A stretch of 64,000 bases of DNA from Phycisphaerae bacterium (GTDB lineage Bacteria > Planctomycetota > Phycisphaerae > Phycisphaerales > UBA1924), in assembly GCA_030429705.1 (NCBI GenBank), contig JAUIES010000002.1, positions 188,001 to 252,000 of the forward strand. The letters run 5' to 3'. The position numbers and the translations under genes are program-made. This document shows, one piece after another, positions 4,677 to 36,440 of this stretch (the stretch's first letter is position 1; each line of letters starts with the position of its first letter). A model generated the notes under the pieces. The model did no database searches. It was not told the origin of the DNA and worked only from the letters and a program-made list of their open reading frames with translations.

Positions 4677-4916
4677 CGCATTATTGTATGGAGCCCAAGG
4701 CCGCTGTGCGGCCGCTGCATGAGGTCTTTGCGTTATACGCCGATTGCTCGAGATTCATGGCGGATCGCATTCATGCCCGATTTGACAAAAGAATCGCATT
4801 CAGATCGATGAGCCATCACGCACGAACCTGATCGGAACTCGGATCAAGAACTGTTTTTGGTGCCAGCCGGATTGAAGTCCGAGTCTAGTCCTCTGGCTTC
4901 AGATTGGAGAAAATTG

Positions 4917-5525: not shown

Positions 5526-5566
5526 AGGCAGCCTCGTATTGGTGTGTGGTTGCCCTATTTGGTCGA

Positions 5567-6343
5567 CTACGCAGGAGCGGCAGGCTGTTCTTCTGCCGAA
5601 GCGTTGGCGTGTGAGGTGATTGTGTTTGAAGCTGAACCAGTGGGCTTCGATTCGAGCATAGTTGCAAGTGGTTGTTGACGATCGAGTTGCTCTGGCACGG
5701 CATGCAGCGGCGCGGCCGTTGTCAGCCTTTCGATGAACATCCAGTGGCACCCGAGACCGACGAGAACCGCAATGTGAAACATCTCGTGTGAACCGAAGAT
5801 GCCAGCGATGATGGTTGGCTGGCCGGTGAACTCGCAGACGGCCCCGACGGTATAAGCAAGGCCGCCAAGAACCAGCGGCGATACGAAGCGGGCGTTGCTG
5901 CGACGGTAGATCACGGCCATCGAGATGGCCCCCACCCAACCGAGGGCGAGGTACATGCTCACGCCCAGCGCCTCAGGCACATCATCGAAGAAGATGACTT
6001 TGAGTGTAAGCCCCGCAATGGCAGCTGCCCAGATGAATGAGAGCATGCCCCAACGCAGCATGCCTCGAAACAGGATTGCCTGAATCGGTGTGAAAGTGCC
6101 AGCGATGAGCGTAAAAATAGCTGCGTGGTCCAGCCGCTGGGCGACGACGCGCGCCGTGGTGTCTTCGGGCATGCTGTGGAAGGTGAACGATGCCAGCAGA
6201 AGCACAACTGCGGTCACCGCGAAGATTGCGAGCGGCCAACGGCGCCAATGAGGATCGGCCCGACGAAGAAGGAGCAGACCCGCCGCTGCCATGGCTACTG
6301 CGCCGGCAAGGTGCGAAAACGCAGAAACTGGTTCTGTGGGCAT
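5567..6343 (-). CDS. Haemolysin III / PAQR family seven-helix membrane protein
   Basis: A protein of 258 residues with about seven transmembrane helices and the conserved PAQR/HlyIII motifs: SAFSHLAGA in helix 1, SFTFHS followed by RLDHAAIFTLIAGTFTP, and SHEMFHIAVLVGLGCHW near the end. The Ser/His/Asp set forms the predicted Zn2+ site of this family, which includes bacterial YqfA/HlyIII and eukaryotic adiponectin receptors. Enzymatic activity of the bacterial members is not firmly known. The last 45 residues are polar, rich in Ala/Pro/Glu. The ATG at 6343 is chosen because an upstream alternative at 6448 would run through the terminator of the preceding gene. Confidence 0.88.
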   Translation of the reverse strand: MPTEPVSAFSHLAGAVAMAAAGLLLLRRADPHWRRWPLAIFAVTAVVLLLASFTFHSMPEDTTARVVAQRLDHAAIFTLIAGTFTPIQAILFRGMLRWGMLSFIWAAAIAGLTLKVIFFDDVPEALGVSMYLALGWVGAISMAVIYRRSNARFVSPLVLGGLAYTVGAVCEFTGQPTIIAGIFGSHEMFHIAVLVGLGCHWMFIERLTTAAPLHAVPEQLDRQQPLATMLESKPTGSASNTITSHANASAEEQPAAPA

Positions 6344-6403
6344 CGGCACGCCGGATCGTACGGCTCGGTAGCCGTACAGCGTCGGTTTCTTGATTGATGA
6401 ACA

Positions 6404-6440
6404 AGAAAAAGAGCCCTGACCCATCTGGACCAGGGCTCTC
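6404..6440 (-). terminator. Rho-independent terminator of the PEP-CTERM gene
   Basis: On the minus strand an 8-bp stem GAGCCCTG/CAGGGCTC (6411-6418 with 6431-6438), extended inward by partial pairing, is followed directly by TTTTTCTTG. It lies 62 bases after the stop codon of the PEP-CTERM protein gene and before the PAQR gene. Confidence 0.85.
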
Positions 6441-6501
6441 GAGATCATGTTTTGGTGCTCGGCAAGAACACACAGGCAGACTGGCGATCCGTCGTTTCGT
6501 T

Positions 6502-7239
6502 TTAGTTGGTGGGACGACGACGGGAAACGCTGCTGAGTATGCCGAGACCGAGCATGGCCAGTGTTGTTGGCGCGGGCACGATGACGAGATTGTCGATCGT
6601 CTGCGTGGTGTTGCCACCTGCCTGGCGGAATGCGAAAGTCGAGATGTCTTCTCCCGGATCGGCCTGGCTCGTTGAGAGAATGCTGCCGAAGCCGCCGATG
6701 GTCAGTTCGCTGATGCCGGTATCGAAGTTGTATGACGCGGTCACGCGATAGGAGGTGCCATAACTGAAGTCTGTGCCGTAGGTGTCAGCCGGGGTTGAAC
6801 TCGAAGTTTCGCCGATGCCGAATGTGAAGTCACCTGAAGCGTTGGCAGCGGTCACGAAGATTCGAGAGTTGAAGCCAAAGCCCGCGTCTCTGAAATGGGC
6901 GAAATATGAAGTTTCAGCAACGACACCAGACGAGCCACCAACGATAACATCGAACGATGCCGTCCAGATCGAACCAGCGCCCATGGTTGCTCCGAGGCTG
7001 TGGTTGACATCTTCCCGTGAGCCACTGCCGTGTTCCAGCATGATTTGACCTGAGTTGACCTGAAGCAGATTGCCAGTGCCACTGTGGTTGGCCCAGCCTC
7101 CCTGGGGGACAAGGTTGCCGTCCGTGTAGGCATCGAAGTCATCGGCAAAGAGCACGCCACCAGCGTTTGCTGTGCCTGCTGTCAGTGCCAGTGCTGCTGC
7201 GCACATGGCCGCGGCGTACTTCATGTATTCACGCTTCAT
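6502..7239 (-). CDS. PEP-CTERM sorting domain protein
   Basis: A protein of 245 residues. It has a signal peptide ending around TAGTANAGG, a body rich in Gly, Ser, Thr and aromatic residues with predicted beta structure (a concanavalin-like or laminin-G-like sandwich would fit), and a C-terminal sorting signal VPAPTTLAMLGLGIL followed by SSVSRRR. The latter is a standard PEP-CTERM tail with 'PAP' as the motif, implying recognition by an exosortase, which is not encoded in this window. The ATG at 7239 has a strong AGAAGGAGA site. It is a monocistronic gene with its own promoter and terminator. The exact role at the surface is unknown. Confidence 0.85.
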   Translation of the reverse strand: MKREYMKYAAAMCAAALALTAGTANAGGVLFADDFDAYTDGNLVPQGGWANHSGTGNLLQVNSGQIMLEHGSGSREDVNHSLGATMGAGSIWTASFDVIVGGSSGVVAETSYFAHFRDAGFGFNSRIFVTAANASGDFTFGIGETSSSTPADTYGTDFSYGTSYRVTASYNFDTGISELTIGGFGSILSTSQADPGEDISTFAFRQAGGNTTQTIDNLVIVPAPTTLAMLGLGILSSVSRRRPTN

Positions 7240-7311
7240 CTCATGTCTCCTTCTCTCAGTTTTGATCTTTCTACAAACGCTCGGCTCCTCTGCTGCGCGT
7301 CCTCGAATTGA

Positions 7312-7320
7312 AGTATATCA
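7312..7320 (-). promoter_or_regulatory. Extended -10 promoter for the PEP-CTERM gene
   Basis: On the minus strand the sequence TGATATACT is a TGnTATAcT extended -10 element, located about 73 bases upstream of the ATG at 7239. An upstream TTGACT is too close (10-base spacer) to act as its -35, which suits an extended -10 promoter. Confidence 0.5.
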
Positions 7321-7702
7321 AAAAGCAAGTCAATTTCAGGATTTGCTAGATAATTAGGCAGTTTCTTAACACTGGCAGCGGTTGTCGCTCGGCGTTGAAA
7401 GTGAAGTGTGTGATCGGCAATGGCCCTAAGTACTGGAAATAACTGTAGATACAGCGTTCGTAGTGGTTGGCGTTTCGTGAGGTAGATTTGGCCATGCTCG
7501 GGTCTGCTCGAGTATGCACAACTCCCAGCAACCGATTGTCGTTTGTTTCGTGCTGCGGTATCGAGGCTCTGCTTCGTGGACCGGGATAGAGGCTCGGCTT
7601 GCGACCTGTACGGTGCCACAGAGCTCTAACACATTGTGCATTCACAGAGAGCGTCATCATCCGGTGGCAGGTTGGTCGTTCATCTAGATCGCATCAGGAT
7701 TG
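7321..7702. other. Intergenic region without recognisable genes
   Basis: The divergent gap between the PEP-CTERM gene and the potassium channel gene. Short open frames exist on the minus strand but have no ribosome-binding site, no domain and unusual composition. I see no hairpin-plus-T-run and no repeat. Confidence 0.6.
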
Positions 7703-7711
7703 TGCTATCCT
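7703..7711 (+). promoter_or_regulatory. Possible extended -10 promoter of the potassium channel gene
   Basis: TGCTATCCT fits TGnTAtnnT and lies about 45 bases upstream of the channel's ATG at 7757. No good -35 is visible. This is a weak call based on position and a short match. Confidence 0.3.
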
Positions 7712-7756
7712 CGTGCCCGGACGCATCGAAACGAGATCAGTCGAGGTTGAATCAGC

Positions 7757-9445
7757 ATGAAGTTCAGTACAACGCAGATCCTCGTATTCTTTAGTGAACG
7801 CCGAACGCAGCGGAATATCCGTTCGTTGCTGAAGTTTGTCGGTGTGCTGGTGGCGTTGATCGTTTTGTACAGCGTGCTGTTCCACTTCATCATGGCGTAT
7901 GAAGGCCAACGGCACAGTTGGGTGACGGGTTTCTACTGGACCCTCACCGTCATGTCGACGCTCGGCTTTGGCGACATCACTTTTCAGAGTGATCTGGGAC
8001 GCGTGTTTTCGATTCTCGTTTTGGCGACCGGCATCATCATGCTGTTGATCCTGTTGCCGTTCACCATCATTCAGTTTTTCTACGCCCCGTGGGTCGAGGC
8101 GCAGACGGCTGCACGAACCCCGCGACAGATCGGATCAGACACCCGTGGGCATGTGATTCTGACCGGGTATAACCCTGTCACCATGGCGTTGATCAGGAAA
8201 CTTGATCAAGCGGGTATCAAATATGTCCTTCTGGTGGCCGATTTCGAGCAGGCATCCACGCACCATGACATGGGTCTGTCTGTCATGTTCGGTCCGCTGG
8301 ATAGCCCCGAGACCTACCGCCTCGCTCAAGCCGAGCACGCGGGGCTGGTGGCAACAACCGAAGAAGATGTGATCAATACCAATGTCGCGTTCCTCGTTCG
8401 CCGTGTTTCGCCAGATGTCCCGATTGTGGCGACTGCGACGAGTGAGACCGCGGCCGCCATTCTCAAACACGCGGGTGCGACGCGGGTTCTGCAACTCGGA
8501 GCCATGATGGGTCGGTCGCTTGCCCGGTGCATGGTGGGGGGCGATGCCATAACGCATGTGGTCGGCAAACTCGACGAACTGTTGATCGCTGAAGCCAACA
8601 CCAATCGCACGCCCTTGGTTGGCAAAACGCTCGCTGAAAACCGGATGAGCGAACTTGGTGTGAGTGTCATCGGGCTCTGGCAGCGCGGCGAATACCAACC
8701 AGCAACGCCGGATGCCGTGGTGGGGGAGCACACGATTCTTGTGCTTGCAGGGTCTGCCGAACAGTTCGCCAATTATGACGAAGCGTTTGTCATTTACAAT
8801 GTGTCGACCAAACCAGTGTTGATCATCGGCGGCGGACGCGTTGGGTCAGCGGCCGCCCGGGCGCTCTCCGAACGCAGCGTGGATTGGCGAATAATCGACA
8901 TCGATCCAGAACAAGTGCCCACCGGTGAGCGCGGCATCGTCGGCGATGCACGCGATCCGAATGTGCTCAAGCGGGCGGGGATTGAAGATACCCCCGCGGT
9001 CCTTATCACCACACACGACGACAGCGTCAATATATACCTGACAATCTATTGTCGATCATTGCGTGACGATCTGCAGATCGTGAGTCGTGCGACTCTGGAA
9101 CAGAACACCGAAACGCTGCACAGCGCGGGTGCCGACTTCGTGCATTCGTATGCTTCGATGGGTTCGTCAGGGGTCTTGAATCCAATCCTCGGCGACCGCA
9201 TCGCGACCGTCACCGAGGGTTTCGATATTTTCCGGATCAGCGTGCCTCTGTCACTGGATGGCAAGTCGCTCGTCGAGTGTGGCGTCCGCGAGAAAACCGG
9301 TTGCACAATCGTGGCTGTTCGCAACGAGGACGGCTCGATCGACATTAACCCGCCAGCGGGAAGCCGACTTGTTGCCGGTCGAGAAATGGTACTGGCCGGT
9401 ACTGGTGAGTCAGAGGTCAAGTTCAAAGAAGCGTTCGGCGAATAA
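7757..9445 (+). CDS. Potassium channel protein with two RCK (TrkA-N/TrkA-C) modules
   Basis: A protein of 562 residues. Two transmembrane helices (about 26-47 and 84-108) flank a pore loop with the selectivity filter TLGFGD (residues 68-73; TVGYGD-type). The cytoplasmic part contains a first Rossmann RCK domain starting at [15 protein letters not shown], a TrkA-C-like domain, a second RCK starting at [19 protein letters not shown] (a canonical GxGxxG nucleotide-binding loop) and a second TrkA-C domain. The first RCK lacks an intact GxGxxG (GYNPVT), so ligand binding there is probably altered. The double RCK on one chain resembles GsuK/BK-type channels. It acts in the inner membrane as a gated K+ pathway. 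It is a single gene, convergent with the SDR gene. Confidence 0.92.
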
Positions 9446-9460
9446 TGACGCTGCCCGCTG

Positions 9461-10270
9461 TCACTTTTTCGGCGTCGCACCTGACCCGGCGAGCAGGCCG
9501 CCGTCAATGTTGAACTCGGCACCTGTGCAATACAGACTTTCGCCGGTAGCCAGATACAGCGCCAGGGCCGCCACTTCGGACGGTTCTGCGAAGCGCCGCA
9601 GCGGTGTGTCGGCGCAGAATTCGGCGATGCGCTGTTGGCGGTCATCGCCAGTGCCAAGCAATGGCTCCCACATCGGGGTCATCACTGCAGCCGGTTGAAT
9701 GACATTGCAACGAATCGTCAGGCCTTCTTCGGCGCAATAGAGGGCGACCGATTTCGTGTGATTGCGCACGCCCGACTTGCTCGATGCGTAAGCCGATGCG
9801 CGCGGAATCCCAACAACGCCAGACCTCGACCCAAGATTGATGATGGAGCCCGTTCCAGATTGTCGCATGAGGCGAATCGCATACTTGCAGCCAAGAAAGA
9901 CACCATCCAGGTTCGTCGCATGTACGCGTCGCCACTCTTCGAGATCGAGATGTTCCGGGTCATGAGGCTGCGGTTGCTCGCTGTCGAATCCCGTGATGCC
10001 TGCGTTGTTCACGAGCACATCGAGCTGGCCGTAGCGGTCTTCAATCATCGCCATGGCTTGTTGCCAATCGGCTTCTTCTCGCACATCAAGGTGTTGGTAT
10101 GTGCTGTTTTCACCAATGGCGTTCGCAACTGACTCGCCACGATCGTCATCCAGGTCACTGACGATAACTTTGGCTCCTTCGTTCGCGAACGCTTGTGCAA
10201 TCGCTGCTCCTATGCCGCGGCCTGCGCCCGTGATCAATGCGACCTTGTTCTTGAGCCGGGGTTCGGGCAT
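9461..10270 (-). CDS. Short-chain dehydrogenase/reductase (SDR) family oxidoreductase
   Basis: A classical SDR of 269 residues. The cofactor loop TGAGRGIG is at residues 14-21, D39 at the end of strand 2 favours NAD+, and NNAG is at 88-91. The catalytic Ser148 (in INLGSRSG), Tyr161 and Lys165 (YASSK) are all present. The C-terminus contains [10 protein letters not shown], the usual substrate-loop end. The substrate is not predictable; close SDR relatives act on sugars, 3-oxoacyl or hydroxysteroid-like compounds. The ATG at 10270 is preferred over an upstream start at 10309 because the Rossmann strand then begins at the usual distance. It is convergent with the potassium channel gene, only 15 bases between stops. 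Confidence 0.9.
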
Positions 10271-10399
10271 GTCTTTGACTCCAATGCGATCGGTTACCTG
10301 ACACAGCATGAAAGCTGCTCGACATAATCTGACAATAACAGGTTGCGGTCAGTTTATCTTGAACATGCACGCAGCGGATGATTGAGTGATTCATCGGGT

Positions 10400-11971
10400 T
10401 CAGGTGGGGGCACCGTTCGATTCGGCAATGCGCCGCATGCGAATGCCATCGAAGCCAGTTCCGTAATAGTCGCGCAGCGTCCTGATCGGCGTGAACCCGG
10501 CGGACTGGTACAGCCCGAGTGCCGCGATATTGGCTGCGCGAACTTCGAGGTAGACCCGTCGTACGCCTTCGGCCTCGAGCGCGGCGAGCGACCAATTCAG
10601 GAGTTGTCGCCCGAGCCCCTGCCCGGCGAACTCAGGTTTGACCGCGACGCTATAGACTCGGCCCGAGCGTGACCTCAGGTGGCTTCGGATGAGATTGACG
10701 CACCATCCTGCGGGGGCGCCATCGACGACCGCAAGCCCGACCCGGGCTCTTGGGTTGCTGATCAGGCGCCGGATCTGGCTTTGATTGAACGCGTCGCCGG
10801 CGTTGTCGAAAGCAACCGCTTCGATGTCCACAATTGCTGCGGTGTCGGCGAGCGTCGCCAGCCGAACGCGAGCTCTGGTGACCGATTCCGCTTCAACCAG
10901 GCGACTGTTGCGGCGACGGTGCGTGAGCGTACGAATCACCGAGCGATCGGGTGTCTGTTGGTCGCTGGCAGCTGCGCGTGTGATGACCGATTTACCAAGC
11001 ATGCGCGTCGGTCGATAACTCTCTTTTGTGTATCGGAGTGTTGCGATCCCCCAGTCATCGCCCGCGTTGATCTCGGTCGCGTTTTCAAAGGCCGATTCAC
11101 AGAACGCGCTATAGATAAACTGCGGTGCGCCATTGACACCCGGTGCAGTTTTCTCAACGCTGACCACACCCATGGTTTCGCTGAGTTGTTCACCGATCGT
11201 AAAGCCCACCAGCGTTCCGCCGACAAACAGTGCCATGGATTTCAGCCCGAGCGGCTCGATCAGTTCGAGATACCGCCGCGTGCAGCGTTCGTCACGCTCG
11301 CGCAGGACATCCACCCCGAGCAGCATTTCGTTGGCTTCGCCCTCGTGTTTGACATCGGCTGCCCGTCGCCAACTTGCGAGGAGCGAGATGCACGCTGGTA
11401 CACACGCTGGGGTGATCGGTCCCATCGTGATGTCGGTGTTCTCTCGCAAGAATCGGCTGCGCAGTTTGCGTTTGTTCTTGAGATCGCCACCGGCCAGGGC
11501 GACCAGTTCGGCTCGGTCATACACATAATCGCCAGGCATAGGCTCGGCATTCAGGCGGAGACCCGTCGCGTTCAGTATGGGGCCCAGACATTCGGCGGGG
11601 ACATACTCAATCCGCGACCGTTCGACACCCAGCACACCCGCGTTGGCTGCATTCATGATCGAAAAGCAGGCTGAGAGAGCATCGCTCAGACGACCGGTCT
11701 GTGCCGGATCGACCGGCAGGGGGGGTAACATCATGGACAGATCCCCGTCGGCTGCACTGAACACACAGAGGTACCCGTCGAGGACAGCGCGAACAAGGTG
11801 GAGCGGCTCGCTCCAGCACACCGAGGCCGCGAACGAGGTATCAGAGATCGGTTCGGTAAGCGACGAGAAAGCGGCTGCGAACAGATCGGCATCATCCAGC
11901 GTGATCGGCGACAATGCCGGGTCGATGTCAACAGCAGCGAGCGCAGGAAGCGGGTAGGCTGAACTGGTCAT
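10400..11971 (-). CDS. DUF2156 (LPG-synthase C-like) and GNAT acetyltransferase fusion
   Basis: A 523-residue fusion. Residues 1 to about 340 fit DUF2156, related to the C-terminal domain of phosphatidylglycerol lysyltransferases. The diagnostic segment is DYVYDRAELVALAGGDLKNK followed by KLRSRFLREN; later parts are YLELIEPLGLKSMALFVGG and a WGIATLRYTKESYRP end. Residues 370-515 are a complete GNAT of the RimI type, with VYSVAVKPEFAGQGLGRQLL as acetyl-CoA loop and ANIAALGLYQSAGF at the end. No transmembrane helices are present, unlike MprF. Both halves share the GNAT fold, so this is a tandem acyl/aminoacyl-transferase. The substrate is unknown. The ATG at 11971 is chosen over one at 12013. 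Confidence 0.8.
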   Translation of the reverse strand: MTSSAYPLPALAAVDIDPALSPITLDDADLFAAAFSSLTEPISDTSFAASVCWSEPLHLVRAVLDGYLCVFSAADGDLSMMLPPLPVDPAQTGRLSDALSACFSIMNAANAGVLGVERSRIEYVPAECLGPILNATGLRLNAEPMPGDYVYDRAELVALAGGDLKNKRKLRSRFLRENTDITMGPITPACVPACISLLASWRRAADVKHEGEANEMLLGVDVLRERDERCTRRYLELIEPLGLKSMALFVGGTLVGFTIGEQLSETMGVVSVEKTAPGVNGAPQFIYSAFCESAFENATEINAGDDWGIATLRYTKESYRPTRMLGKSVITRAAASDQQTPDRSVIRTLTHRRRNSRLVEAESVTRARVRLATLADTAAIVDIEAVAFDNAGDAFNQSQIRRLISNPRARVGLAVVDGAPAGWCVNLIRSHLRSRSGRVYSVAVKPEFAGQGLGRQLLNWSLAALEAEGVRRVYLEVRAANIAALGLYQSAGFTPIRTLRDYYGTGFDGIRMRRIAESNGAPT

Positions 11972-24697: not shown

Positions 24698-24820
24698 GAG
24701 CGGGTCCTTGAACGGTCGCGCAGCCGGTCGCGATGAATCGCGGCAAGGTCCGCTTTTGTGCGCGAGGATGTTGTGGGCACTCAACGAGGGGGTAATTGCG
24801 GGATATGGCGCTCTTCCATC

Positions 24821-25009
24821 GCTCGATGGAACGATCCAAGCGCTCGATGGAAGAGCGCAAGCGCTCGATGGAGGAGCGCGACGGCTCGATGGAACTATGA
24901 AAGCGCTCGATGGAACGCTTCGATCGCTCGATGGAAGAGCGCGACCGCTCGATCGGAGAGCGCCATCGCCCGCTGGGACGGCTCCATCGCACGCTTGAAT
25001 CCTGCCATA
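24821..25009. repeat. 21-bp tandem repeat array, nine degenerate units
   Basis: Nine consecutive units of exactly 21 bases start at 24821, 24842, 24863, 24884, 24905, 24926, 24947, 24968 and 24989. The core is GCTCGATGGAAGAGCGCnAnC. Units 1 to 6 share GCTCGATGG; unit 7 varies at one position; units 8 and 9 are more diverged. A further weak unit may precede at 24800. Because 21 is a multiple of three and the units lack stops, several frames on both strands are open and spell heptapeptide repeats. None has a convincing start site, so I call it non-coding or undecided. Confidence 0.85.
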
Positions 25010-25365: not shown

Positions 25366-26346
25366 CTACCATTCAATACTAGTGTCTTTAGTTGCATCGC
25401 CCCATCCAAAATCATGACTAAGAGCTACTTTAAACACACTATCATCTTGAATATAGTAGTACTCCCAACCGTCAGAGATTGCAACCAGCGCAAGAGGTAC
25501 CATTTCTGAGTCTTCATACTTGCTAATCAGTTTTCCTCTCGAGTACACAGCTGCAACCTCATCGCAAACGACAAGTAAATGGTCATCATCAACTTCAATC
25601 GGATCCGCCAAATGACAACACGCAATAATACTATTTTTTGTTACTATCTCGGACTTGACAGTTGATGAGACCAACTCGCCATCATGGAAGCACTCAATGC
25701 GTCGTCCATGTATGTCGTCAAGTGGAGCAAATTTGTGTTCACTCCACTTGTCGTTCTGTAGTTTAAACTTTCTAAAATTCGAACCTGCTTCACGAGTCAC
25801 GAACGCCTCATCAGATTCCCAAACAGTCTTCCCTGGCGATGTGTAGTCAAATGTACTACGCACTGTATTTGTATTGACATCCCATACTTCCAACACAAAC
25901 TCTCGGTTCCGGCTGACACTCCAGCTGACGAGAACTGAACCTGATGGTGACAACGAAACAGCTGTTGATTCTTTAGAAAAAGTAGCGGCAGGTATCTCTG
26001 TCGATCCAAACTGTTCGTTAGTCCAATTAAAAATAGAAACAGGTCTGTCGTCAGCTCCTAATGCAAACATACTCGCTCCCGTTGACAAAGCGTATTCGGA
26101 TCGATGAGCCGGCGGTATGCCATCGCGAACAATTCCAGATGATAAATTAATTACTCGGCCACCAGACAGCAATACCAAATGGTGACTGATTGGCTTTCTA
26201 GGAACCATCACTCTTATGTCTCCGGACGACTCCCCATCTCTGCTGCAATGAACAATGTCCGTTCTGCCGCCGTCGCAACCAAACAATGTGCTGATAACAA
26301 GTAATAAATACAATGCGAAAAACAACAAGTGATTAAAATTGTTCAT
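25366..26346 (-). CDS. AT-rich putative lipoprotein with WD40-like repeats
   Basis: A protein of 326 residues. The N-terminus is hydrophobic and ends in a lipobox (LVISTLFGC, Cys22 or so), so the protein is predicted to be lipid-anchored. The rest has strands like SPSGSVLVSWSVSRNREFVL followed by EVWDVNTNTVRSTFDY, which resemble WD40/propeller blades. The gene is clearly richer in A and T than its neighbours and uses rarer codons, suggesting recent acquisition. The ATG at 26346 is chosen for the lipoprotein signal. A perfect extended -10 element lies about 75 bases upstream. I do not recognise a specific family. Confidence 0.7.
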   Translation of the reverse strand: MNNFNHLLFFALYLLLVISTLFGCDGGRTDIVHCSRDGESSGDIRVMVPRKPISHHLVLLSGGRVINLSSGIVRDGIPPAHRSEYALSTGASMFALGADDRPVSIFNWTNEQFGSTEIPAATFSKESTAVSLSPSGSVLVSWSVSRNREFVLEVWDVNTNTVRSTFDYTSPGKTVWESDEAFVTREAGSNFRKFKLQNDKWSEHKFAPLDDIHGRRIECFHDGELVSSTVKSEIVTKNSIIACCHLADPIEVDDDHLLVVCDEVAAVYSRGKLISKYEDSEMVPLALVAISDGWEYYYIQDDSVFKVALSHDFGWGDATKDTSIEW

Positions 26347-26420
26347 AATTACAATCAAAAATGTCAATTGGAAGAACCAGATCCGGACGGAGAAGGTGCC
26401 GCTCCAACCCCAGTCCATGG

Positions 26421-26429
26421 ATTATACCA
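26421..26429 (-). promoter_or_regulatory. Perfect extended -10 promoter of the lipoprotein gene
   Basis: The minus strand reads TGGTATAAT, an exact TGnTATAAT element, 75 bases before the ATG at 26346. No good -35 is seen, as is common for extended -10 promoters. Confidence 0.6.
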
Positions 26430-27065
26430 AGTCCGATCACATAGGCGGGGTGGCACCGTACGGCATTGATTCTCCCGGTTTCTCTCGGCCGTGCCACCGA
26501 AGTCCGTCTGCGGACCTTGGTGCTTCGTGCAACACATACAAGACAACGGCGCGACTCCGCCCGACGGAGTTGATTGTACAGCAATCACGCCGCGGGCCAC
26601 ACCGCTTTTTTCACTCAACGATTGCTGTTCTGGTCCTCCTCATGCCCGCCCCGATGACAGCGTGAACTTGCTTCCCTCCGGATCCGCGATTCTGAGCACT
26701 CGACTCCTCGCCAATGCCATCCCACCCAAAGATGGGGTTTCGGGCTTCACGCCTCCTCATTCGTATGCTCTCCAATTCACACTCCGCGTCCTCTGCCCCT
26801 CCGTGACCTCTGCGGACCGCCTTTCTTGCTGCCCCGCACCCCCGGGACACCCGCCCCCTCTATCTAGAGAGAGCCACAACGACACCGCCTGCGGTACCTT
26901 GTCACCCCCGCCGAACATTTATTTCTGCACACGCTGCACGATTCTCAACACACGAGCCCCAACCCGCCGATTGCGATCATCACACGCGGGTCGAGCGTCG
27001 GCCTGCACACAATATTGATCTCATCTGTTCATCACTCTGTGTTGAAAAACACAAAGGAGGCAGCT
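26430..27065. other. Non-coding, degenerate C-rich stretch upstream of the Fn3-like gene
   Basis: No convincing gene. An open frame on the plus strand exists but is rich in Cys, Pro and Ser with no start signal. Around 26781-26828 the minus strand reads as a degenerate series of CGCAGAGG, CACGGAGG, GCAGAGGACGCGGAG words, resembling the widespread intergenic 'CACGGAG/GCAGAG' repeats. A small hairpin ACTCCGCCCGACGGAGT lies near 26554-26570. The strong AAAGGAGG site at the right end belongs to the next gene. Confidence 0.5.
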
Positions 27066-27710
27066 ATGCCAGTGGTCCCGCAAACCATCATCGGAAAACT
27101 CGAGTTCTATGAAGAGCACCTGCCCGTCTGGTCTAAAGACCCGGCTGCCATCGGCTTGACCCCAGTACAACTGGTCGAACTGGCGAACCGTACCTCAGCC
27201 GCCAGGGCAGCGTACGACGCCGCGCATGCGGCACGCTCGGCGGCAAAGGCATCGACTTTGTCACAGGCACAATCAATCGATGCAATGCACGATCTCGGCG
27301 GCGACCTGATCAAGACCATCCGCACTTTCGCCGAAACCAACGACGACCCCGCCGTCTTCGTCCTCGCCGAGATCCCAGCGCCCGCCCCCCCGACACCAGC
27401 CGGTCCGCCCGAGCAGCCAACCGAACTGGCTGCAAACTTCCTCCTCCCCTTCGGCATCGGTCTGTCATGGAAGGGATCCGTCGCGCAAGGTGCCTACTTC
27501 GGCATTTGGCGCAGGCTCGATGGCGAAAACGAGTTCACGCTCGTTGCCACAAGCAAAGAAAAATCCTTCGACGATCAAACGCTCCCCGCAGGGGCAGCCT
27601 CGGTCTCGTACTACATCTCCGCGCACCGCGAATCGTTCACTGTCAACGGCTCCGCCCTTTCAATCCAGATTGGTGCGAACGGCAACATGAGCCTCTCGAT
27701 GGCTGCGTAA
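27066..27710 (+). CDS. Helical protein with C-terminal Fn3-like domain, conserved hypothetical
   Basis: A protein of 214 residues in two parts. The first 100 residues are helical, start with [20 protein letters not shown] and include an Ala-rich helix with [15 protein letters not shown] and [16 protein letters not shown] Pro-rich linker ([14 protein letters not shown]) leads to about 85 residues of beta structure with [19 protein letters not shown] and [11 protein letters not shown], which look like a fibronectin type III module. No signal peptide is present. I recall similar proteins in other planctomycetes, without known function. The start has an exceptionally strong AAAGGAGG site, suggesting high expression, and a strong terminator follows. 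Confidence 0.75.
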
Positions 27711-27743
27711 CGAGAACGACCAGCAACAATGCAAAACCCAGAC

Positions 27744-27771
27744 CAGGGCCCGGTTCTTCCGGGTCCTGTTT
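27744..27771 (+). terminator. Strong hairpin terminator after the Fn3-like gene
   Basis: A 10-bp stem CAGGGCCCGG/CCGGGTCCTG (27744-27753 with 27759-27768) with a 5-base loop is followed by TTTC. The T-run is short. Confidence 0.7.
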
Positions 27772-27865
27772 CATTGGGCGTGCACGCGCTGACGCGCCGG
27801 TGGCAACTCCGGGTCAGTGCTACCATGCCCAACGAATCAAAAAAGAACACGAACAGGAGCTCACG

Positions 27866-28282
27866 ATGACCTCGATTTCAACCAGCGATATCAGCCTCGA
27901 CCAAGCCCACGCCGTCGTTCACGCCGCCCTCGACAAAGCCAAAGCGATTGACACCAAGATGGACATCGCGGTCGTCGATGCCGGCGGCAACTTGAAAGCC
28001 TTCTTCCGAATGGACGATGCGTGGATTGGCTCAATCGATATCTCGATCAAAAAGGCTCGCACCGCGCGTTTCTTTGATATGCCGACCGGCGACATCGGGG
28101 GACTCTCGCAGCCGGGCGGCCCGCTCTACGGGATCGAGCACTCCAATGGCGGACTCATCACCTTCCCTGGAGGCGTACCGATCAAATCAGGCGATACCGT
28201 CATTGGTGCGATCGGCGTGTCAGGGTCGTCAGTCGAGAATGACCACGCGGTCGCTGCAGCCGGTGCGGCCGCTTGTTCTTGA
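27866..28282 (+). CDS. GlcG/HbpS family heme-binding-like protein
   Basis: A protein of 138 residues with the GlcG/HbpS fold: [39 protein letters not shown] (the most conserved strand), [13 protein letters not shown] and a [19 protein letters not shown] end. HbpS from Streptomyces binds haem and is extracellular. Here no signal peptide is present, so it is cytoplasmic and may be a GlcG/PduO-C type protein; whether it binds haem or a corrinoid is unknown. The ATG at 27866 follows CAGGAGC. Confidence 0.88.
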
Positions 28283-29477: not shown

Positions 29478-29570
29478 CGAGTAGATCGGATCTCCGAGCC
29501 GAAGATCAGTTCGAATCGGTTCGGAGAACCGAAGATCAGCTCGAATCGGTTCGGAGAACCGATCTACTCG
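29478..29570 (-). repeat. Structured expansion in the P9 region of rnpB with a 30-bp direct repeat
   Basis: A perfect 12-bp inverted pair CGAGTAGATCGG (29478-29489) / CCGATCTACTCG (29559-29570) encloses two near-identical 30-bp units (29499-29528 and 29529-29558; one mismatch). Each unit carries half of a TCGGTTCTCCGAACCGA hairpin. Confidence 0.85.
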
Positions 29571-30947: not shown

Positions 30948-31220
30948 ATGGCCAAAGCTGTTGTTGACCCTGATGAACTGCGTCGATTCGCTCAATCGCT
31001 CAAGCGATTCAATGCCAATCTGTCGCAACAACTCAACGCGATGAACGGGCAGATGCAATCGCTCAGCCAGACATGGCGTGATCAGGAACAAGCCAAGTTT
31101 ACAGCCGAGTTTGAGCACACCTTGCGAGCGCTGACTCGTTTTACGCAGGCGAGCGAACAGCATATCCCGTTTCTTCTTCGAAAAGCCGACCGGGTCGAAG
31201 AGTATCTGCGGCAAAGATAA
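30948..31220 (+). CDS. WXG100-like (ESAT-6 superfamily) small secreted-type protein
   Basis: A protein of 90 residues predicted to be a helical hairpin. Helix 1 includes DELRRFAQSLKRFNANLSQQ; the turn has TWRDQEQAKF, a W-x-D variant of the W-x-G motif; helix 2 has FEHTLRALTRFTQASEQHI and RKADRVEEYLRQR. Length, turn position and all-helical composition fit WXG100 proteins, the substrates and structural partners of type VII secretion ATPases. The ATG has AAGGAG before it. The next gene starts 3 bases after its stop, and an FtsK/EssC-type ATPase follows in the same cluster. Confidence 0.8.
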   Translation: MAKAVVDPDELRRFAQSLKRFNANLSQQLNAMNGQMQSLSQTWRDQEQAKFTAEFEHTLRALTRFTQASEQHIPFLLRKADRVEEYLRQR

Positions 31221-31223
31221 CGC

Positions 31224-32297
31224 ATGGCTCAAGGTGCAAAAGTCACATCCATCGCGGTGCTTCGAGAGTTTCGCCCCGCCCTGATCAAATTCGTCGAAGA
31301 GGCGCGGGCTTCACTTGTCGCCGCGGAGAGTGAGTGCAACCGGACACTTGAGTGGCTTCGCCGTGATCGAACCGTCTATTGGAAGAAAGAAAAGCGAAGG
31401 CGAGAAGATGAAATCGTTCGATGCAAGACTGAGTTGATGAACAAACAACGCTCTGCGACCGGTGATCCTCGTTCGGCGGTCGAAGAGCGGAAGGCTTTGA
31501 ATCGCGCCGTCCAAAGACTCGAAGAAGCCGTCCGCAAACAAGCCGACACCAAGCATTGGCTACGACAACTTGAAAAAGAGCAAATGCAGTACAAGGGGAT
31601 GGCGCAGGCTCTCAACGGGCAGATCACGCGACTTGAAGACAAGGCGCTGCACGACCTCGATCGAATGGCTGAAGCGCTTGAAGACTATGTCTCCATGGCC
31701 GTGCCGAACAGTAGCGACATGGGTGAAGCGCCAAGGCCGCCAGGATTCGGCGAAGGTGACAGTTTCTCGGCAGCGGTCGCATCGATCGGTGATCAGGCTG
31801 CGACTCGTTCTCCCTTCGCTTCGTATCGAGTGGCCACGCCATCACCCGGGCGTCGTCGCCGGGCCGAGATGCACGAACTTGCTGACGATACGCCTCGGCA
31901 CGACCTTGGCAGGACAGATCGGAAGAAGCAGGAAGACGCGATCGCGGCTCTCTTGATGGATCAGCCGCCTGAGCATGAAACGACGGTTTCCATTTCTCGC
32001 GGTGCTTTGGAGCATGACCGCATCTATCTGGAGCGCGTCCCACCGATCGACGAGAACGATTCGGGTTGGTACCTGGCTGCAGCGACTGAAAAAGGACCGG
32101 ATCCTGACCGTCGAGAACTCTTGCGTGTGCCAATCGCCCGCATTCTGGCGTTTCGGCCCGGACTCGAACCCGGCCTTCGTTTGTGCGAGGGATCTTTGAT
32201 TGTGGCCGAAGGGTCGCTGGTGCTATCGGTGACCGCTCCGAACGATACACTGGCGTACGAACCTGACTCGGGTTCAAGCGAGGGGAAAACCGCATGA
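31224..32297 (+). CDS. Coiled-coil protein of the type VII-like cluster
   Basis: A protein of 357 residues. Residues 1-155 are a long charged coiled coil, e.g. WLRRDRTVYWKKEKRRREDE and AVQRLEEAVRKQADTKHWL. A disordered linker (about 160-240) follows. The last 100 residues are beta-rich (SGWYLAAATEKGPDPDRREL, then LRVPIARILAFRPGLEPGL) and loosely recall immunity-type DUF2185/Imm33 domains; that is tentative. No signal peptide or membrane helix. It starts 3 bases after the WXG100 gene and overlaps the next gene by four bases, which places it in the same operon as a likely chaperone, scaffold or substrate. Confidence 0.7.
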   Translation: MAQGAKVTSIAVLREFRPALIKFVEEARASLVAAESECNRTLEWLRRDRTVYWKKEKRRREDEIVRCKTELMNKQRSATGDPRSAVEERKALNRAVQRLEEAVRKQADTKHWLRQLEKEQMQYKGMAQALNGQITRLEDKALHDLDRMAEALEDYVSMAVPNSSDMGEAPRPPGFGEGDSFSAAVASIGDQAATRSPFASYRVATPSPGRRRRAEMHELADDTPRHDLGRTDRKKQEDAIAALLMDQPPEHETTVSISRGALEHDRIYLERVPPIDENDSGWYLAAATEKGPDPDRRELLRVPIARILAFRPGLEPGLRLCEGSLIVAEGSLVLSVTAPNDTLAYEPDSGSSEGKTA

Positions 32298-32509
32298 GTG
32301 CGTCAACCGGGCGAGCGATGCTGGCCGATGCGAATAAACAGTTGATGACCGCCTGGGCGCGGGCGCGCGAGAAGTGGAACGACGAAGCGGCCCGCCGATT
32401 TGAAGCCAACTATCTCGAACCCCTCGCCCCCAAGATTCGCATGACGCAAGGTGGAATGGAAAAACTCGCCGAAGCAACCGCTGCCGCCCGACGGGCCTGC
32501 TCAGATTGA
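32294..32509 (+). CDS. Second WXG100-like small helical protein
   Basis: A protein of 71 residues, all helical, with TAWARAREKWNDEAARRFEA (W-x-D with the conserved Phe a few residues later) followed by YLEPLAPKIRMTQGGMEKL and a final AAARRAC. It resembles a shortened WXG100 hairpin. It overlaps the coiled-coil gene by four bases (ATGA) and ends 7 bases before the ATPase gene, so it is almost certainly co-translated. Having two different W-x-D small proteins suggests a heterodimeric pair, as in EsxA/EsxB. Confidence 0.7.
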   Translation: MSASTGRAMLADANKQLMTAWARAREKWNDEAARRFEANYLEPLAPKIRMTQGGMEKLAEATAAARRACSD

Positions 32510-32516
32510 AGTATAC

Positions 32517-35500
32517 ATGACTATGCCTAATGTCCCTGTTTCAGCCGATGCAAGCACCGATCTGATGACCGGTCCGTTCATGCAGCGAGAGAAAGCGTTG
32601 GTCGATTTGCTGGCGTTGGCGGTCAAAGAACGAGCCGAGCAGACCGCCGAAGCAACCGAGACGCACGATACTGACCTTGAGCAGGCAACGAGCGAACACC
32701 GCCGCACTATGCGAGATGAGAAGGAATCGTACGACACGCAGCGTGAAGAACTCACCAGCAAGCTCGAGCGAACGCAGGCCAAGTTGGAAGAACGCTTCAA
32801 GGAACGCCACACCGAGATCGAACGCGCCTACCAGAGCGAACGCATCGGTGCGATTGAAAAACTGAACAAAGAAGAGCGAGCGATCGACGAAACGCTCAAG
32901 GAGAAAACCTGGCTTGCTGAGACTGTTTTTGATGCCGCTGAAGCCAAGCCTCGCTTGCTCGTCGAACGCGTCACGCGCGCAGCGGAAAATGCGAAGCAAC
33001 AGGCAACCGAAATTGAGAATGAAGCGCTGCGTGTCGCTCGTTCGTTCGTCAACCCGACAGAGGTTGCGAGCCCCACACCAACAGTCGAGACGCTTTCAGA
33101 AGATCCTGACCAAGCCATGGCAAGCGTGCAAGAGTCACTTGAGTCAGCAAAAGCGGCGCTTGTTGGTTTACGGCGTGCGTGGTTCCTCAAACTATCGAGC
33201 GGTGTGATGTTCCTGTCACCGCTTGTCCTTTTGGCATCTGCAGCGACGGCGTGGCTGATGACTGACCGGTCTGGGTGGCAGGCCCCGGCGATGGCTGCAG
33301 GAGGCGCAATCGTTGTTGTAGGATTGCTTGTCGTCGGTTTGCGAGCACTTGGGGCGCGTCAAATGCGTGTCGCCTACCGACCAGTCAACGAGTTCCTGAC
33401 AAAAGCCCGCACGGAAGCCGATGCTGCGCAGCTTCAAGCCGAATGGAACGCAAAGGCCGAAACAACAGAACTGCGCGAGAAAATGCGCACCGATACACAG
33501 GGGGCTCGAGACGAACACCGATCGGCGAGAGAGCAGGTCGAACGAAGGCGGACCGAGGATGTCGCAGCCGTCGATAAGGCGTACAAGCCACGACTTGAAG
33601 CGTGGACCTCGAAGTATGACGCAGACCGTGAACGCATACGAAGTGAAGGTGCAACACGGATCGATGAACTCACCGCCACGCACACAGCGGCCGTCGACAA
33701 AATGGAGCGCGATTATGCTCGACTTGTCGAAGAAATCGAATCGACATTTGCGAGTGCAATTGAACGCATTGAACGCACATGGTTTGAACGCATGCAAGCG
33801 GTAGGGCGCGCTGGTTCAGATATGTTCGGCGCATCGCAGACCTACTTCCCCGCATGGTTCGATGAGCGATGGGCGGAGTATCATGCGCCTTCGACCGCGA
33901 CGCCGGCTATTCAGTTTGGTAGCCTCACCGCCGATGGAGCAGCCTTCGAGGGCGGACTGCCTGAAGAACCCAAACTTCTCGAAGGACTCTCGACTTCGCA
34001 GACGCTCCCCGCCATGCTCGATTTCCCGGGCTCATGTTCACTGTTAATCGAAACTGGTCCTGATCATCGGCAGGAAGGCATTGCCACGCTACAGAATGTC
34101 ATGCTCCGGCTGCTAACCTCGATCCCGCCGGGCAAGTTGCGATTCACCATTGTCGACCCGGTCGGTCTGGGACAGAGTTTTGCGGGATTCATGCACCTCG
34201 CGGACTACGAGGAAGCCCTCGTCAGCAATCGAATCTGGACCGATCCCAAACATATCGAGCAACGACTGACCGACCTGACCGAGCACATGGAAAAGGTTAT
34301 TCAGAAGTATCTACGCAACGAGTTTGACAGCATCGAGGCTTACAACGATGCAGCCGGCGAGATCGCCGAACCGTACCGGTTCCTGGTCATTGCAGACTTC
34401 CCGACCTCGTTTACAGATGCAGCAGCGCAACGGCTCAAGAGCATTCTTGAATCGGGAGCTCGTTGCGGCGTGTATACGCTCATTTTGACCGACCCGGCAG
34501 CAAAGGTGCCAGCAGGTGTCACGCTCGAAGACATCGAACGAAACGCAGTCAGCGTTGTCGAAACGGATGATGGTTTGCGGCTCGCAGATGAAACGCTGTC
34601 TTGCCTTCCGCTCAAGTTGGAAGCCCCCCCGGAAGATGCGTTCCTGTCGCGAATCGTCCATCGCGTCGGTGAATTGTCGAAGAATGCCGGTCGTGTCGAG
34701 GTGCCATTCCGCATCATCGGCCCGACGCCAGACAAGATCTGGAGTCTTTCATGTGCGGACGAACTGCGTGTGCCGCTGGGCCGGGCAGGGGCGACCAAAC
34801 AGCAGTATCTGACTCTCGGTCACGGCACGAGCCAGCATGTCCTGCTTGCAGGGAAGACGGGTTCAGGTAAATCTACCTTGCTGCATGTTTTGCTTGCGTC
34901 TGCCGCGATGTGGTATTCGCCGCGTGAAGTTGAGTTCTATCTCGTCGACTTCAAAAAGGGGGTCGAGTTCAAGACATACGCCACGCACCACCTCGCGCAC
35001 GCTCGCGCGGTGGCTGTCGAATCAGACCGCGAGTTTGGTCTTTCGGTCTTGCACAAACTGGATGAAGAACTCAAACGCCGTGGCGATCTGTACCGCGAGG
35101 TGGGGGCGCAGGACATTGCCGGCTTCCGCAGCCGCAGGCCCGATGTGCACATGCCACGCACCGTCCTCATGATCGACGAGTTCCAGGAGTTCTTCACCGA
35201 GGATGACAAGATCGCGCAGGATGCGTCGTTGTTACTCGATCGGCTTGTGAGACAGGGCCGTGCCTTTGGCATGCATGTCATGCTCGGGAGTCAAACACTC
35301 AGCGGTGCCTATTCATTGGCCCGCAGTACGATGGGTCAGATGGCGGTTCGCATTGCGCTGCAGTGTTCCGAGACCGACTCGTACCTGATTCTGTCTGAAG
35401 ACAACGCGGCAGCTCGACTACTCGCACGCCCGGGCGAAGCGATCTACAACGACGCGAACGGCATGATTGAGGGCAATAGCCCATTCCAGATCGCGTGGCT

Positions 35501-36440
35501 GCCCGATACGGTCCGTGACGCCGCTCTGCAGGCTGTCGCAGAACGCGTTGAGCAAGATGGGTTTGTTGCGCCGGAACCACAGATCGTCTTTGAAGGCAAT
35601 ATCCCGGCCAAGATCGAAGACAATCCGGACATCAAACGGCTGGCTGCCCATCGACCGGAGATCATGCCTGCTTCTGCGTCGGCGTGGTTCGGTGACGCAG
35701 TCGCGATCAAGCCACCGACTGCAGCCAACTTCCGCCGCCACACAGGTTCAAACGCGGTGCTGGTTGGTCAGCAGGATGATCCAACACTCGCGCTCACCAT
35801 TGCCAGTATCGTCAGCCTCGCTGCCCAGTTCCCGAAGAATGCAGCCAAGTTTGTCGTTCTGGATGGCACCCCGGCGGACGACCCACGAGCGGGAATCCTC
35901 GAGTCTGTCGTCAATGCGATCCCGCATGAAACGCGCTTTGGCACTTGGCGCGATACAGAAGCAGTGATGGCAGAACTGGGCGCAGAACTCGCAACGCGCG
36001 AAAGCCAGAACCTGACCGACGAGTCCGCAGTGTTCCTTTTCATTCACGGCGTCCATCGTTTCCGCGGGCTTCGCCGCAAAGAGGACGACTACTCGTTCAA
36101 CATGGATGATGAAGCAACGGAGAAAACACCTGACAAGCATCTCGCATCACTGCTGCGCGAGGGCAGTGCGCTCGGGATGCATGTCATGCTGTGGGCCGAC
36201 ACGGTTACCAATCTTGAGCGGGCATTAGACCGCCAGGCGATCGGTGAGTTCGACACGCGTGTCCTGTTCCAGATGAACGCGTCGGACTCAACGATTCTTA
36301 TCGATTCGCCGGCTGCCGGTCGACTGGGTATGCAACGCGCCTTGGTCTATAACGAAGAATCGGGCGAGATCGAAAAGTTCAGGCCGTACGCTGTGCCTGA
36401 CCTTGCGTGGGTTCGCGAAACGCTGGGCCAAATGGCATAG
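32517..36440 (+). CDS. FtsK/SpoIIIE-type (EssC/EccC-like) membrane-anchored ATPase
   Basis: A protein of 1307 residues. It begins with a coiled coil (about 20-220), continues with two transmembrane helices (about 226-250 and 258-282) and a second coiled coil (about 290-430), then carries three ATPase-like modules. Module 1 (about 460-720) lacks a Walker A. Module 2 is canonical, with GKTGSGKST at 779-787, LVDFKKGVEF and Walker B TVLMIDEF at 882-889. Module 3 (about 1050-1300) is degenerate (NAVLVGQQDDPTLA in place of the P-loop). Three modules in a row is the EssC/EccC plan; the FHA domains of Firmicute EssC are replaced by coiled coils. It is the predicted motor of the WXG100 locus. The first of two close ATGs, at 32517, is used. 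Confidence 0.9.
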   Translation: MTMPNVPVSADASTDLMTGPFMQREKALVDLLALAVKERAEQTAEATETHDTDLEQATSEHRRTMRDEKESYDTQREELTSKLERTQAKLEERFKERHTEIERAYQSERIGAIEKLNKEERAIDETLKEKTWLAETVFDAAEAKPRLLVERVTRAAENAKQQATEIENEALRVARSFVNPTEVASPTPTVETLSEDPDQAMASVQESLESAKAALVGLRRAWFLKLSSGVMFLSPLVLLASAATAWLMTDRSGWQAPAMAAGGAIVVVGLLVVGLRALGARQMRVAYRPVNEFLTKARTEADAAQLQAEWNAKAETTELREKMRTDTQGARDEHRSAREQVERRRTEDVAAVDKAYKPRLEAWTSKYDADRERIRSEGATRIDELTATHTAAVDKMERDYARLVEEIESTFASAIERIERTWFERMQAVGRAGSDMFGASQTYFPAWFDERWAEYHAPSTATPAIQFGSLTADGAAFEGGLPEEPKLLEGLSTSQTLPAMLDFPGSCSLLIETGPDHRQEGIATLQNVMLRLLTSIPPGKLRFTIVDPVGLGQSFAGFMHLADYEEALVSNRIWTDPKHIEQRLTDLTEHMEKVIQKYLRNEFDSIEAYNDAAGEIAEPYRFLVIADFPTSFTDAAAQRLKSILESGARCGVYTLILTDPAAKVPAGVTLEDIERNAVSVVETDDGLRLADETLSCLPLKLEAPPEDAFLSRIVHRVGELSKNAGRVEVPFRIIGPTPDKIWSLSCADELRVPLGRAGATKQQYLTLGHGTSQHVLLAGKTGSGKSTLLHVLLASAAMWYSPREVEFYLVDFKKGVEFKTYATHHLAHARAVAVESDREFGLSVLHKLDEELKRRGDLYREVGAQDIAGFRSRRPDVHMPRTVLMIDEFQEFFTEDDKIAQDASLLLDRLVRQGRAFGMHVMLGSQTLSGAYSLARSTMGQMAVRIALQCSETDSYLILSEDNAAARLLARPGEAIYNDANGMIEGNSPFQIAWLPDTVRDAALQAVAERVEQDGFVAPEPQIVFEGNIPAKIEDNPDIKRLAAHRPEIMPASASAWFGDAVAIKPPTAANFRRHTGSNAVLVGQQDDPTLALTIASIVSLAAQFPKNAAKFVVLDGTPADDPRAGILESVVNAIPHETRFGTWRDTEAVMAELGAELATRESQNLTDESAVFLFIHGVHRFRGLRRKEDDYSFNMDDEATEKTPDKHLASLLREGSALGMHVMLWADTVTNLERALDRQAIGEFDTRVLFQMNASDSTILIDSPAAGRLGMQRALVYNEESGEIEKFRPYAVPDLAWVRETLGQMA

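What the first reader, a model, noticed from the sequence alone, without database searches (positions are those of the whole stretch)
30948..36440. Compact type VII secretion-like locus with two WXG100-like proteins and a coiled-coil EssC/FtsK ATPase
Seen: four genes in a row, spaced 3 bases, -4 bases and 7 bases, encode a 90-residue and a 71-residue helical protein, each with a W-x-D turn, a 357-residue coiled-coil protein, and a 1307-residue ATPase with two TM helices and three FtsK-like modules, only the middle one with an intact P-loop (GKTGSGKST at 779-787). Known: EssC/EccC motors have multiple FtsK modules and WXG100 substrates. Unusual: no FHA domains, coiled coils instead; no EccB/D/E, EsaA/EssA/EssB or mycosin gene nearby; only one canonical P-loop. 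Inference: a minimal or divergent T7SS of planctomycetes, possibly with the coiled-coil protein as a new component whose C-terminus vaguely recalls immunity domains.
Basis: partly seen in the sequence, partly recalled or inferred. Interest (0 to 1): 0.8.

Follow-up and report, generated by a model that had tools for sequence, protein, structure and literature searches.

The report
Membrane-anchored minimal type VII-like operon
Four neighbouring genes in this planctomycete genome encode a small protein-pumping motor and its three helical partners, a stripped-down cousin of the type VII secretion machine of tuberculosis bacteria; the motor type was noted in print in 2012, but this membrane-anchored, toxin-free version and the strict co-retention of its four parts are new detail.

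Summary
Four co-directional genes (30948-36440) encode a WXG100 protein (PF06013 over cut-off), a coiled-coil hairpin protein with an Imm33-like C-terminus, a 71-residue WXG100-related protein and a 1307-residue EccC/EssC-like FtsK ATPase with two predicted TM helices and one intact P-loop, in the middle module. The order is conserved in 57 of 61 named loci with enough upstream sequence. Among 80 planctomycete genomes, 52 have all four proteins and 24 have none. This holds even where the genes are scattered over the chromosome, so they work as one unit. Zhang et al. 2012 (PMC3482391) noted solo WXG proteins plus a three-module ATPase active only in the middle, in planctomycetes among others. 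Bell et al. 2024 (PMC11090510) described the same parts beside CoCoNuT systems, with a nuclease on the coiled-coil protein and no TM helices. This branch differs: it has TM helices, no toxin domain, no phage or near-full-length plasmid carriers found, and a tree that keeps phyla apart. Best reading: a minimal T7SS-like exporter whose coiled-coil protein fills the toxin-carrier slot of its relatives. Secretion itself is inferred.

The parts
30948..31220 (+). WXG100 protein, 90 aa, W-R-D turn, invariant C-terminal Y-L-x-Q-R; the only WXG100 in the genome
   Evidence: PF06013 E=7.6e-11 over cut-off; single genome hit; nearest solved structure HP0062 of H. pylori, 3fx7 E=2e-11; 53-70% identity among relatives
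31224..32297 (+). Coiled-coil protein: two long antiparallel helices (residues 10-77 and 82-158), disordered linker, optional Imm33-like domain (about 247-328)
   Evidence: AlphaFold2 model, mean pLDDT 86; PF24719; core-only form of 165-240 aa in most relatives
32294..32509 (+). 71-aa WXG100-related protein with W-[ND]-D turn; start overlaps the stop of the coiled-coil gene by 4 nt
   Evidence: hhalign to the WXG100 alignment over the W-x-D turn, pairwise E=6.5e-5; 5 of 13 orthologues match PF06013, best E=3e-4; conserved family
32517..36440 (+). EccC/EssC-like FtsK ATPase, 1307 aa: N-terminal coiled coil, two TM helices, second coiled coil, three RecA-type modules, only the middle one with a P-loop
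   Evidence: FtsK_SpoIIIE E=1.9e-32; EccC/EssC models match below their cut-offs; model of residues 470-1307, pLDDT 87, best Foldseek hit EccC 4nh0 E=2.9e-30; TM and P-loop counts
34851..34874 (+). Walker A (GKTGSGKS), residues 779-786 of the ATPase
   Evidence: invariant columns in alignment A1; 76 of 76 at the key positions

Best explanation
A minimal, membrane-anchored relative of type VII secretion systems. Shown by sequence or model: a hexamer-type FtsK/EccC motor with predicted TM helices and one ATP-hydrolysing module; two WXG100-type hairpin proteins; one coiled-coil hairpin protein; all four kept or lost together. Inferred: the coiled-coil protein and the small hairpin proteins form an elongated helical pre-secretion complex, as LXG toxins do with their Lap partners in T7SSb. 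The ATPase recognises it, probably through a degenerate module, and moves the coiled-coil protein (and perhaps the WXG100) across the inner membrane on ATP hydrolysis. In plasmid and CoCoNuT-linked relatives the coiled-coil slot carries a nuclease next to an immunity-type gene. In this planctomycete branch it carries no recognisable toxin, and either nothing or an Imm33-like domain. The exported product is therefore more likely a structural or signalling component, or an adaptor, than a toxin.
For: WXG100 and EccC-like motor. Conserved four-gene order in 57 of 61 loci. All-or-none presence: 52 genomes with all four, 24 with none, 4 mixed that have contig breaks or low completeness. Co-retention when scattered: in one 6.8-Mb contig the four genes lie at 0.23, 0.71, 1.94 and 2.66 Mb (G143). 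TM helices in all 95 full-length ATPases. A Helicobacter plasmid has the order WXG100, coiled coil plus WHH/colicin-type nuclease, SMI1/KNR4, small protein, FtsK. The coiled-coil profile matches the Rhodococcus and Caballeronia plasmid counterparts above heptad-preserving shuffles (24.9 against at most 7.9 bits, 14.7 against at most 10.5). LXG-Lap precedent from PMC9600955.
Against: No secretion data. No accessory membrane component was found, although T7SSa and T7SSb need several. Nothing is known of passage through the outer membrane of a diderm. The Helicobacter coiled-coil protein is equated by position only; its sequence does not beat shuffles. TM-less relatives with the same parts show that membrane export may not be the family's basic activity (PMC11090510).
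Confidence: 0.6

Rival explanations
1. A DNA- or nucleoprotein-directed defence translocase: the FtsK motor acts on DNA, or as a conformational switch, at the membrane, and the WXG100 and coiled-coil proteins are regulators rather than exported substrates.
For: FtsK motor domains are among the best structural matches (6t8b Z 30.9). Relatives sit in TerY, CARF, kinase/phosphatase and Ter neighbourhoods, and Bell et al. doubt ordinary secretion for the TM-less versions.
Against: Sequence and the three-module tandem are closest to EccC. TM helices are universal in this branch. No nuclease, CARF or Ter gene was found beside the window operon. WXG100 partners point to T7SS.
Confidence: 0.22
2. A polymorphic toxin delivery system of T7SSb type in which the coiled-coil protein is an LXG-like toxin and the Imm33-like domain is a leftover immunity part.
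For: Plasmid relatives carry nuclease domains and immunity-type genes in this slot. The C-terminal end of the coiled-coil protein is variable.
Against: No homologue with a Pfam toxin domain among 75. One WXG100 per genome and no satellite effectors. The genes survive unlinked, as a toxin-immunity cassette would not be expected to.
Confidence: 0.12
3. A canonical ESX/Ess system whose other membrane parts lie elsewhere in the genome.
For: The WXG100 and the EccC-like motor are shared with these systems.
Against: YukD and YukC families are absent from 21 relatives, with a working B. subtilis control. EccC/EssC equivalog cut-offs are missed by far (106.6 against 509 bits, 90.2 against 778). EccB was not found, but its control did not ring.
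Confidence: 0.04

Closest known systems
Solo WXG plus YueA-like ATPase with three FtsK/HerA domains, middle one active (Zhang et al. 2012, PMC3482391, Table 1 note 6; credited also to Anantharaman et al. 2012)
   Same: Same motor layout and WXG100 partner; planctomycetes and verrucomicrobia are named
   Different: Noted there in one sentence and called mobile; the coiled-coil protein, second hairpin protein, TM helices and all-or-none occurrence are not described in the text read; this branch looks vertically inherited
[quoted passage not shown] 2024, PMC11090510)
   Same: Three modules with only the middle one active, N-terminal coiled coil, two WXG100-type proteins, coiled-coil protein
   Different: There the ATPase lacks TM helices, the coiled-coil protein carries a D-ExK nuclease, and VWA/CARF genes flank it
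H. pylori HP0062/HP0066 WXG100 cluster (PMC3397514, PMC4978471)
   Same: HP0062 is the closest solved relative of the WXG100 protein and also has a W-R-D turn; it clusters with an FtsK gene and an HNH nuclease
   Different: Different phylum; a nuclease is present; HP0066 was not compared directly here
T7SSb with LXG effector, Lap1/Lap2 and EssC (PMC9600955)
   Same: A helical carrier, small WXG100-like helpers and an EssC-type motor
   Different: No YukD or YukC found; no LXG toxin domain; only one P-loop

Membership tests
Type VII secretion system (general) | WXG100 protein | tested here: met
   PF06013 42.6 bits over the 27.3 cut-off; one per genome
Type VII secretion system (general) | Membrane-bound multi-module FtsK/SpoIIIE ATPase of EccC/EssC type | tested here: inconclusive
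   FtsK family and EccC-like fold met; TM helices by hydropathy; EccC/EssC equivalog cut-offs not reached
Type VII secretion system (general) | ATPase-dependent export of the WXG100 protein | not testable with these tools
   needs secretion assays
T7SSb | YukD/EsaB and YukC/EssB | tested here: not met
   no match in 21 genomes, control rings in B. subtilis
T7SSa (ESX) | EccB (and EccD, EccE, mycosin) | tested here: inconclusive
   EccB not found but the control did not ring either; the others were not searched
Solo WXG / middle-active YueA-like system (Zhang 2012) | Three FtsK modules, P-loop only in the middle one | tested here: met
   three RecA modules in the model; one P-loop in 94 of 95
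Solo WXG / middle-active YueA-like system (Zhang 2012) | WXG protein without fused toxin | tested here: met
   90-aa protein, no extra domain
Solo WXG / middle-active YueA-like system (Zhang 2012) | Mobile element | tested here: inconclusive
   flanks differ between relatives, but no viral carrier, no plasmid match over 80% of the query, and the tree separates phyla
CoCoNuT Type III-A EssC-like extension | Coiled-coil protein fused to D-ExK nuclease | tested here: not met
   Imm33-like domain or nothing
CoCoNuT Type III-A EssC-like extension | ATPase without TM helices | tested here: not met
   TM helices predicted in all 95
CoCoNuT Type III-A EssC-like extension | Flanking TerY-like VWA, CARF, McrBC genes | tested here: not met
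   Pfam hits among the 10 neighbouring ORFs scanned (4 without any hit): HbpS-like, PTS EIIA, RsmB/NusB, sensor kinase, response regulator, PQQ_2; none is VWA, CARF or McrBC
Imm33-like domain (PF24719) | Profile match over the curated cut-off in the coiled-coil protein | tested here: met
   30.6 against 27 bits

The most novel reading that the evidence does not exclude
A toxin-free, chromosomally stable T7SS-like machine of diderm planctomycetes and verrucomicrobia, complete with four proteins, that exports a structural coiled-coil protein rather than an effector; it would be the smallest known WXG100 secretion system.
Probability: 0.3. Interest if true: 0.75.

Novelty: new variant of a known kind. 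Interest (0 to 1): 0.5.

Why it matters
If the four proteins suffice for export, they define a far smaller WXG100 secretion machine than the mycobacterial or Bacillota ones and make the question of the minimal T7SS directly testable in bacteria with an outer membrane. The coiled-coil protein also links this branch to nuclease-carrying relatives, which suggests how a toxin delivery module and a house-keeping exporter can share parts. Even if secretion is wrong, a strictly co-retained four-protein set in a substantial minority of planctomycete genomes has no known function.

Tried and rejected
Literature search for WXG100 plus planctomycetes by type VII terms gave nothing useful; the prior art surfaced through FtsK, WXG and TerY terms. 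Conserved flanking genes: none, so no fifth linked component. Homology of the coiled-coil protein to the WXG100 family: no (hhalign probability 0.7%). Structural neighbours of the coiled-coil model are unspecific long helices (best Foldseek E 0.06, VIA Z 11.4). Equating the active module with EccC D1 or D2 was left open: sequence favours D1 (76 against 56 bits in 4nh0, 86 against 37 in EccC5), while the tandem superposes on D1-D2-D3 in order, which would make it D2, as Bell et al. call it. No domain tree was made. EccB search is void for lack of a ringing control. Virus or phage carriage: no relatives in viral contigs; in the phage records the listed matches cover 16-25% of the query (the FtsK core), apart from one unannotated faecal record at 46% and 28% identity that was not followed up. 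A read-through fusion of the first two genes to imitate a complex was considered for folding and dropped as artificial.
Full report
OBSERVATION. The first product is a WXG100 protein by Pfam (42.6 bits, cut-off 27.3), the only one in the genome. The second is a coiled-coil protein whose last third matches the Imm33-like domain PF24719 just over its cut-off. The third has no direct Pfam match. Five of its 13 orthologues match WXG100 weakly, and its profile aligns with the WXG100 profile across the W-x-D turn (hhalign pairwise E 6.5e-5, probability 64%). The fourth is an FtsK/SpoIIIE ATPase whose best named relatives are EccC and EssC, well under their curated cut-offs.

CONSERVATION. A search of 40 relatives found full-length or near full-length ATPases in 16 of them, usually preceded by the same three genes. 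In a phylum-wide draw of 294 planctomycete genomes, 47 had a match at E <= 1e-15; six of these (families f38 and f87, E about 1e-16) cover only the FtsK core and are not counted below. A GTDB scan gave 466 confirmed relatives in a capped list; the best 80 loci were fetched, mostly Planctomycetota, with three from Verrucomicrobiota/Lentisphaerota. Of the 61 named loci with at least 2 kb upstream, 57 carry WXG100, coiled coil and small hairpin protein in this order and strand ahead of the ATPase. Nothing else is conserved around the operon.

ALL-OR-NONE OCCURRENCE. I searched each of the four families in 80 genomes and tallied them. Fifty-two genomes have all four and 24 have none. The four mixed genomes have contig ends at the locus (G005, G018) or completeness of 80-86% (G254, G145). 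This is a chosen set, enriched in ATPase carriers, and genomes are related, so the Fisher values (1e-16 to 1e-19) overstate independence. The telling cases are scattered sets. In G143, a single 6.8-Mb contig, the ATPase, WXG100, small hairpin and coiled-coil genes lie at 0.23, 0.71, 1.94 and 2.66 Mb. In G125 they lie on four contigs. In G063, G174, G230, G189, G251 and G025 they lie at two or three places. All four are still present, once each. Linkage alone therefore does not explain the association, and the coiled-coil and small proteins are true parts.

THE MOTOR. An AlphaFold2 model of residues 470-1307 (76 sequences, pLDDT 87) has three RecA-type modules. Foldseek puts the EccC cytoplasmic domain 4nh0 first (E 2.9e-30). 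VIA-align gives FtsK motors Z 30-31 on the middle module and EccC/EssC tandems Z 28-29 over 490-710 residues. Among 95 full-length relatives, 94 have exactly one Walker A motif, and all have at least one predicted TM helix before the modules (79 have two). Sequence ranks the active module closest to EccC D1, whereas the tandem fits D1-D2-D3 in order, so its exact counterpart is unsettled.

THE COILED-COIL PROTEIN. Its model is a long antiparallel two-helix hairpin (residues 10-77 and 82-158) plus a separate alpha/beta domain. Lengths across relatives fall into two groups, about 165-240 aa (core only) and 336-357 aa (core plus the Imm33-like domain), with one 300-aa exception; 10 of 75 match PF24719 and none matches a toxin family. 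Plasmid relatives of the ATPase explain the slot. In a Helicobacter plasmid the order is WXG100, coiled-coil protein ending in a WHH/colicin-type nuclease, SMI1/KNR4 protein, small protein, FtsK. In a Caballeronia plasmid it is VWA, WXG100, 436-aa coiled-coil protein, 113-aa protein, 76-aa protein, FtsK, CARF. In a Rhodococcus plasmid it is FtsK, 314-aa, 73-aa, 87-aa WXG100-like protein, then Ter genes. The WXG100 profile matches all three (E 2e-14 to 3e-27). The coiled-coil profile matches the Rhodococcus and Caballeronia proteins better than any of about 200 heptad-preserving shuffles, but not the Helicobacter one. The nuclease reading of the Caballeronia C-terminus rests on Bell et al.; Pfam gave no match.

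PRIOR ART. Zhang et al. [quoted passage not shown] Bell et al. 2024 (PMC11090510) describe EssC-like ATPases with only the central module active, N-terminal coiled coils and no TM helices, two WXG100 proteins and a coiled-coil nuclease in extended CoCoNuT operons, and cite Anantharaman et al. 2012, which I could not read. The nearest solved WXG100 is HP0062 of H. pylori, which also has W-R-D and lies in a cluster with an FtsK gene (PMC3397514; PMC4978471). The finding is therefore a variant of a described kind. New here, as far as the held library shows: TM helices throughout the branch, a coiled-coil protein without nuclease, the all-or-none set, and persistence when unlinked.

HISTORY. In a tree of 76 ATPases the Verrucomicrobiota/Lentisphaerota rows form one group apart from Planctomycetota (support 100). 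One Singulisphaera-labelled row (L129) sits among Phycisphaerae, which may be transfer or a binning error. No relatives were found in viral contigs, and plasmid matches cover at most 71% at about 31% identity. The 'mobile' label fits the plasmid relatives better than this branch.

MECHANISM. Shown: motor type, WXG100 kinship, one active module, four-part unit. Inferred with fair support: membrane anchoring. Inferred by analogy: a helical pre-secretion complex like LXG-Lap1-Lap2 (PMC9600955), recognised by the motor and moved across the inner membrane, with the coiled-coil protein as carrier or cargo. Open: passage across the outer membrane, the meaning of the Imm33-like domain, and whether the motor moves protein at all. 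The main rival is a DNA-directed defence role, suggested by the neighbourhoods of the TM-less relatives.

Noticed in passing
window 24820-24990: Tandem array of a roughly 21-bp unit (CGCTCGATGGAAGAGCGCAAG, also seen as a 63-bp period), in or next to an overlapping-ORF region; function unknown.
   Followed up: no
window 29499-29562: Two near-identical 30-bp direct repeats (97% match) just upstream of the ORF that precedes the operon.
   Followed up: no
G063, G125, G143, G174, G230, G189, G251, G025: The four-gene operon has been broken up over the chromosome in one family (f32) and separately in G025, with all four genes kept; a natural test of functional linkage.
   Followed up: partly
L187 (G025:C16) 6331-7542: WXG100, small hairpin and coiled-coil genes are kept together in the reverse order, about 180 kb from the ATPase on the same contig.
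   Followed up: no
L208 (Deinococcus plasmid CP029776.1) 6677-11479: FtsK followed by two WXG100-like proteins, a 326-aa coiled-coil protein and a protein matching the small-hairpin profile (E 6e-8): a plasmid relative in which no nuclease was recognised.
   Followed up: partly
L207 (Rhodococcus pseudokoreensis plasmid) 3466-11230: FtsK relative next to Hsp70 and GrpE genes; a DnaK homologue is also listed in the H. pylori WXG100 cluster.
   Followed up: no
window 26001-28000: Local GC-skew drop to -0.19 against mostly small positive values elsewhere.
   Followed up: no
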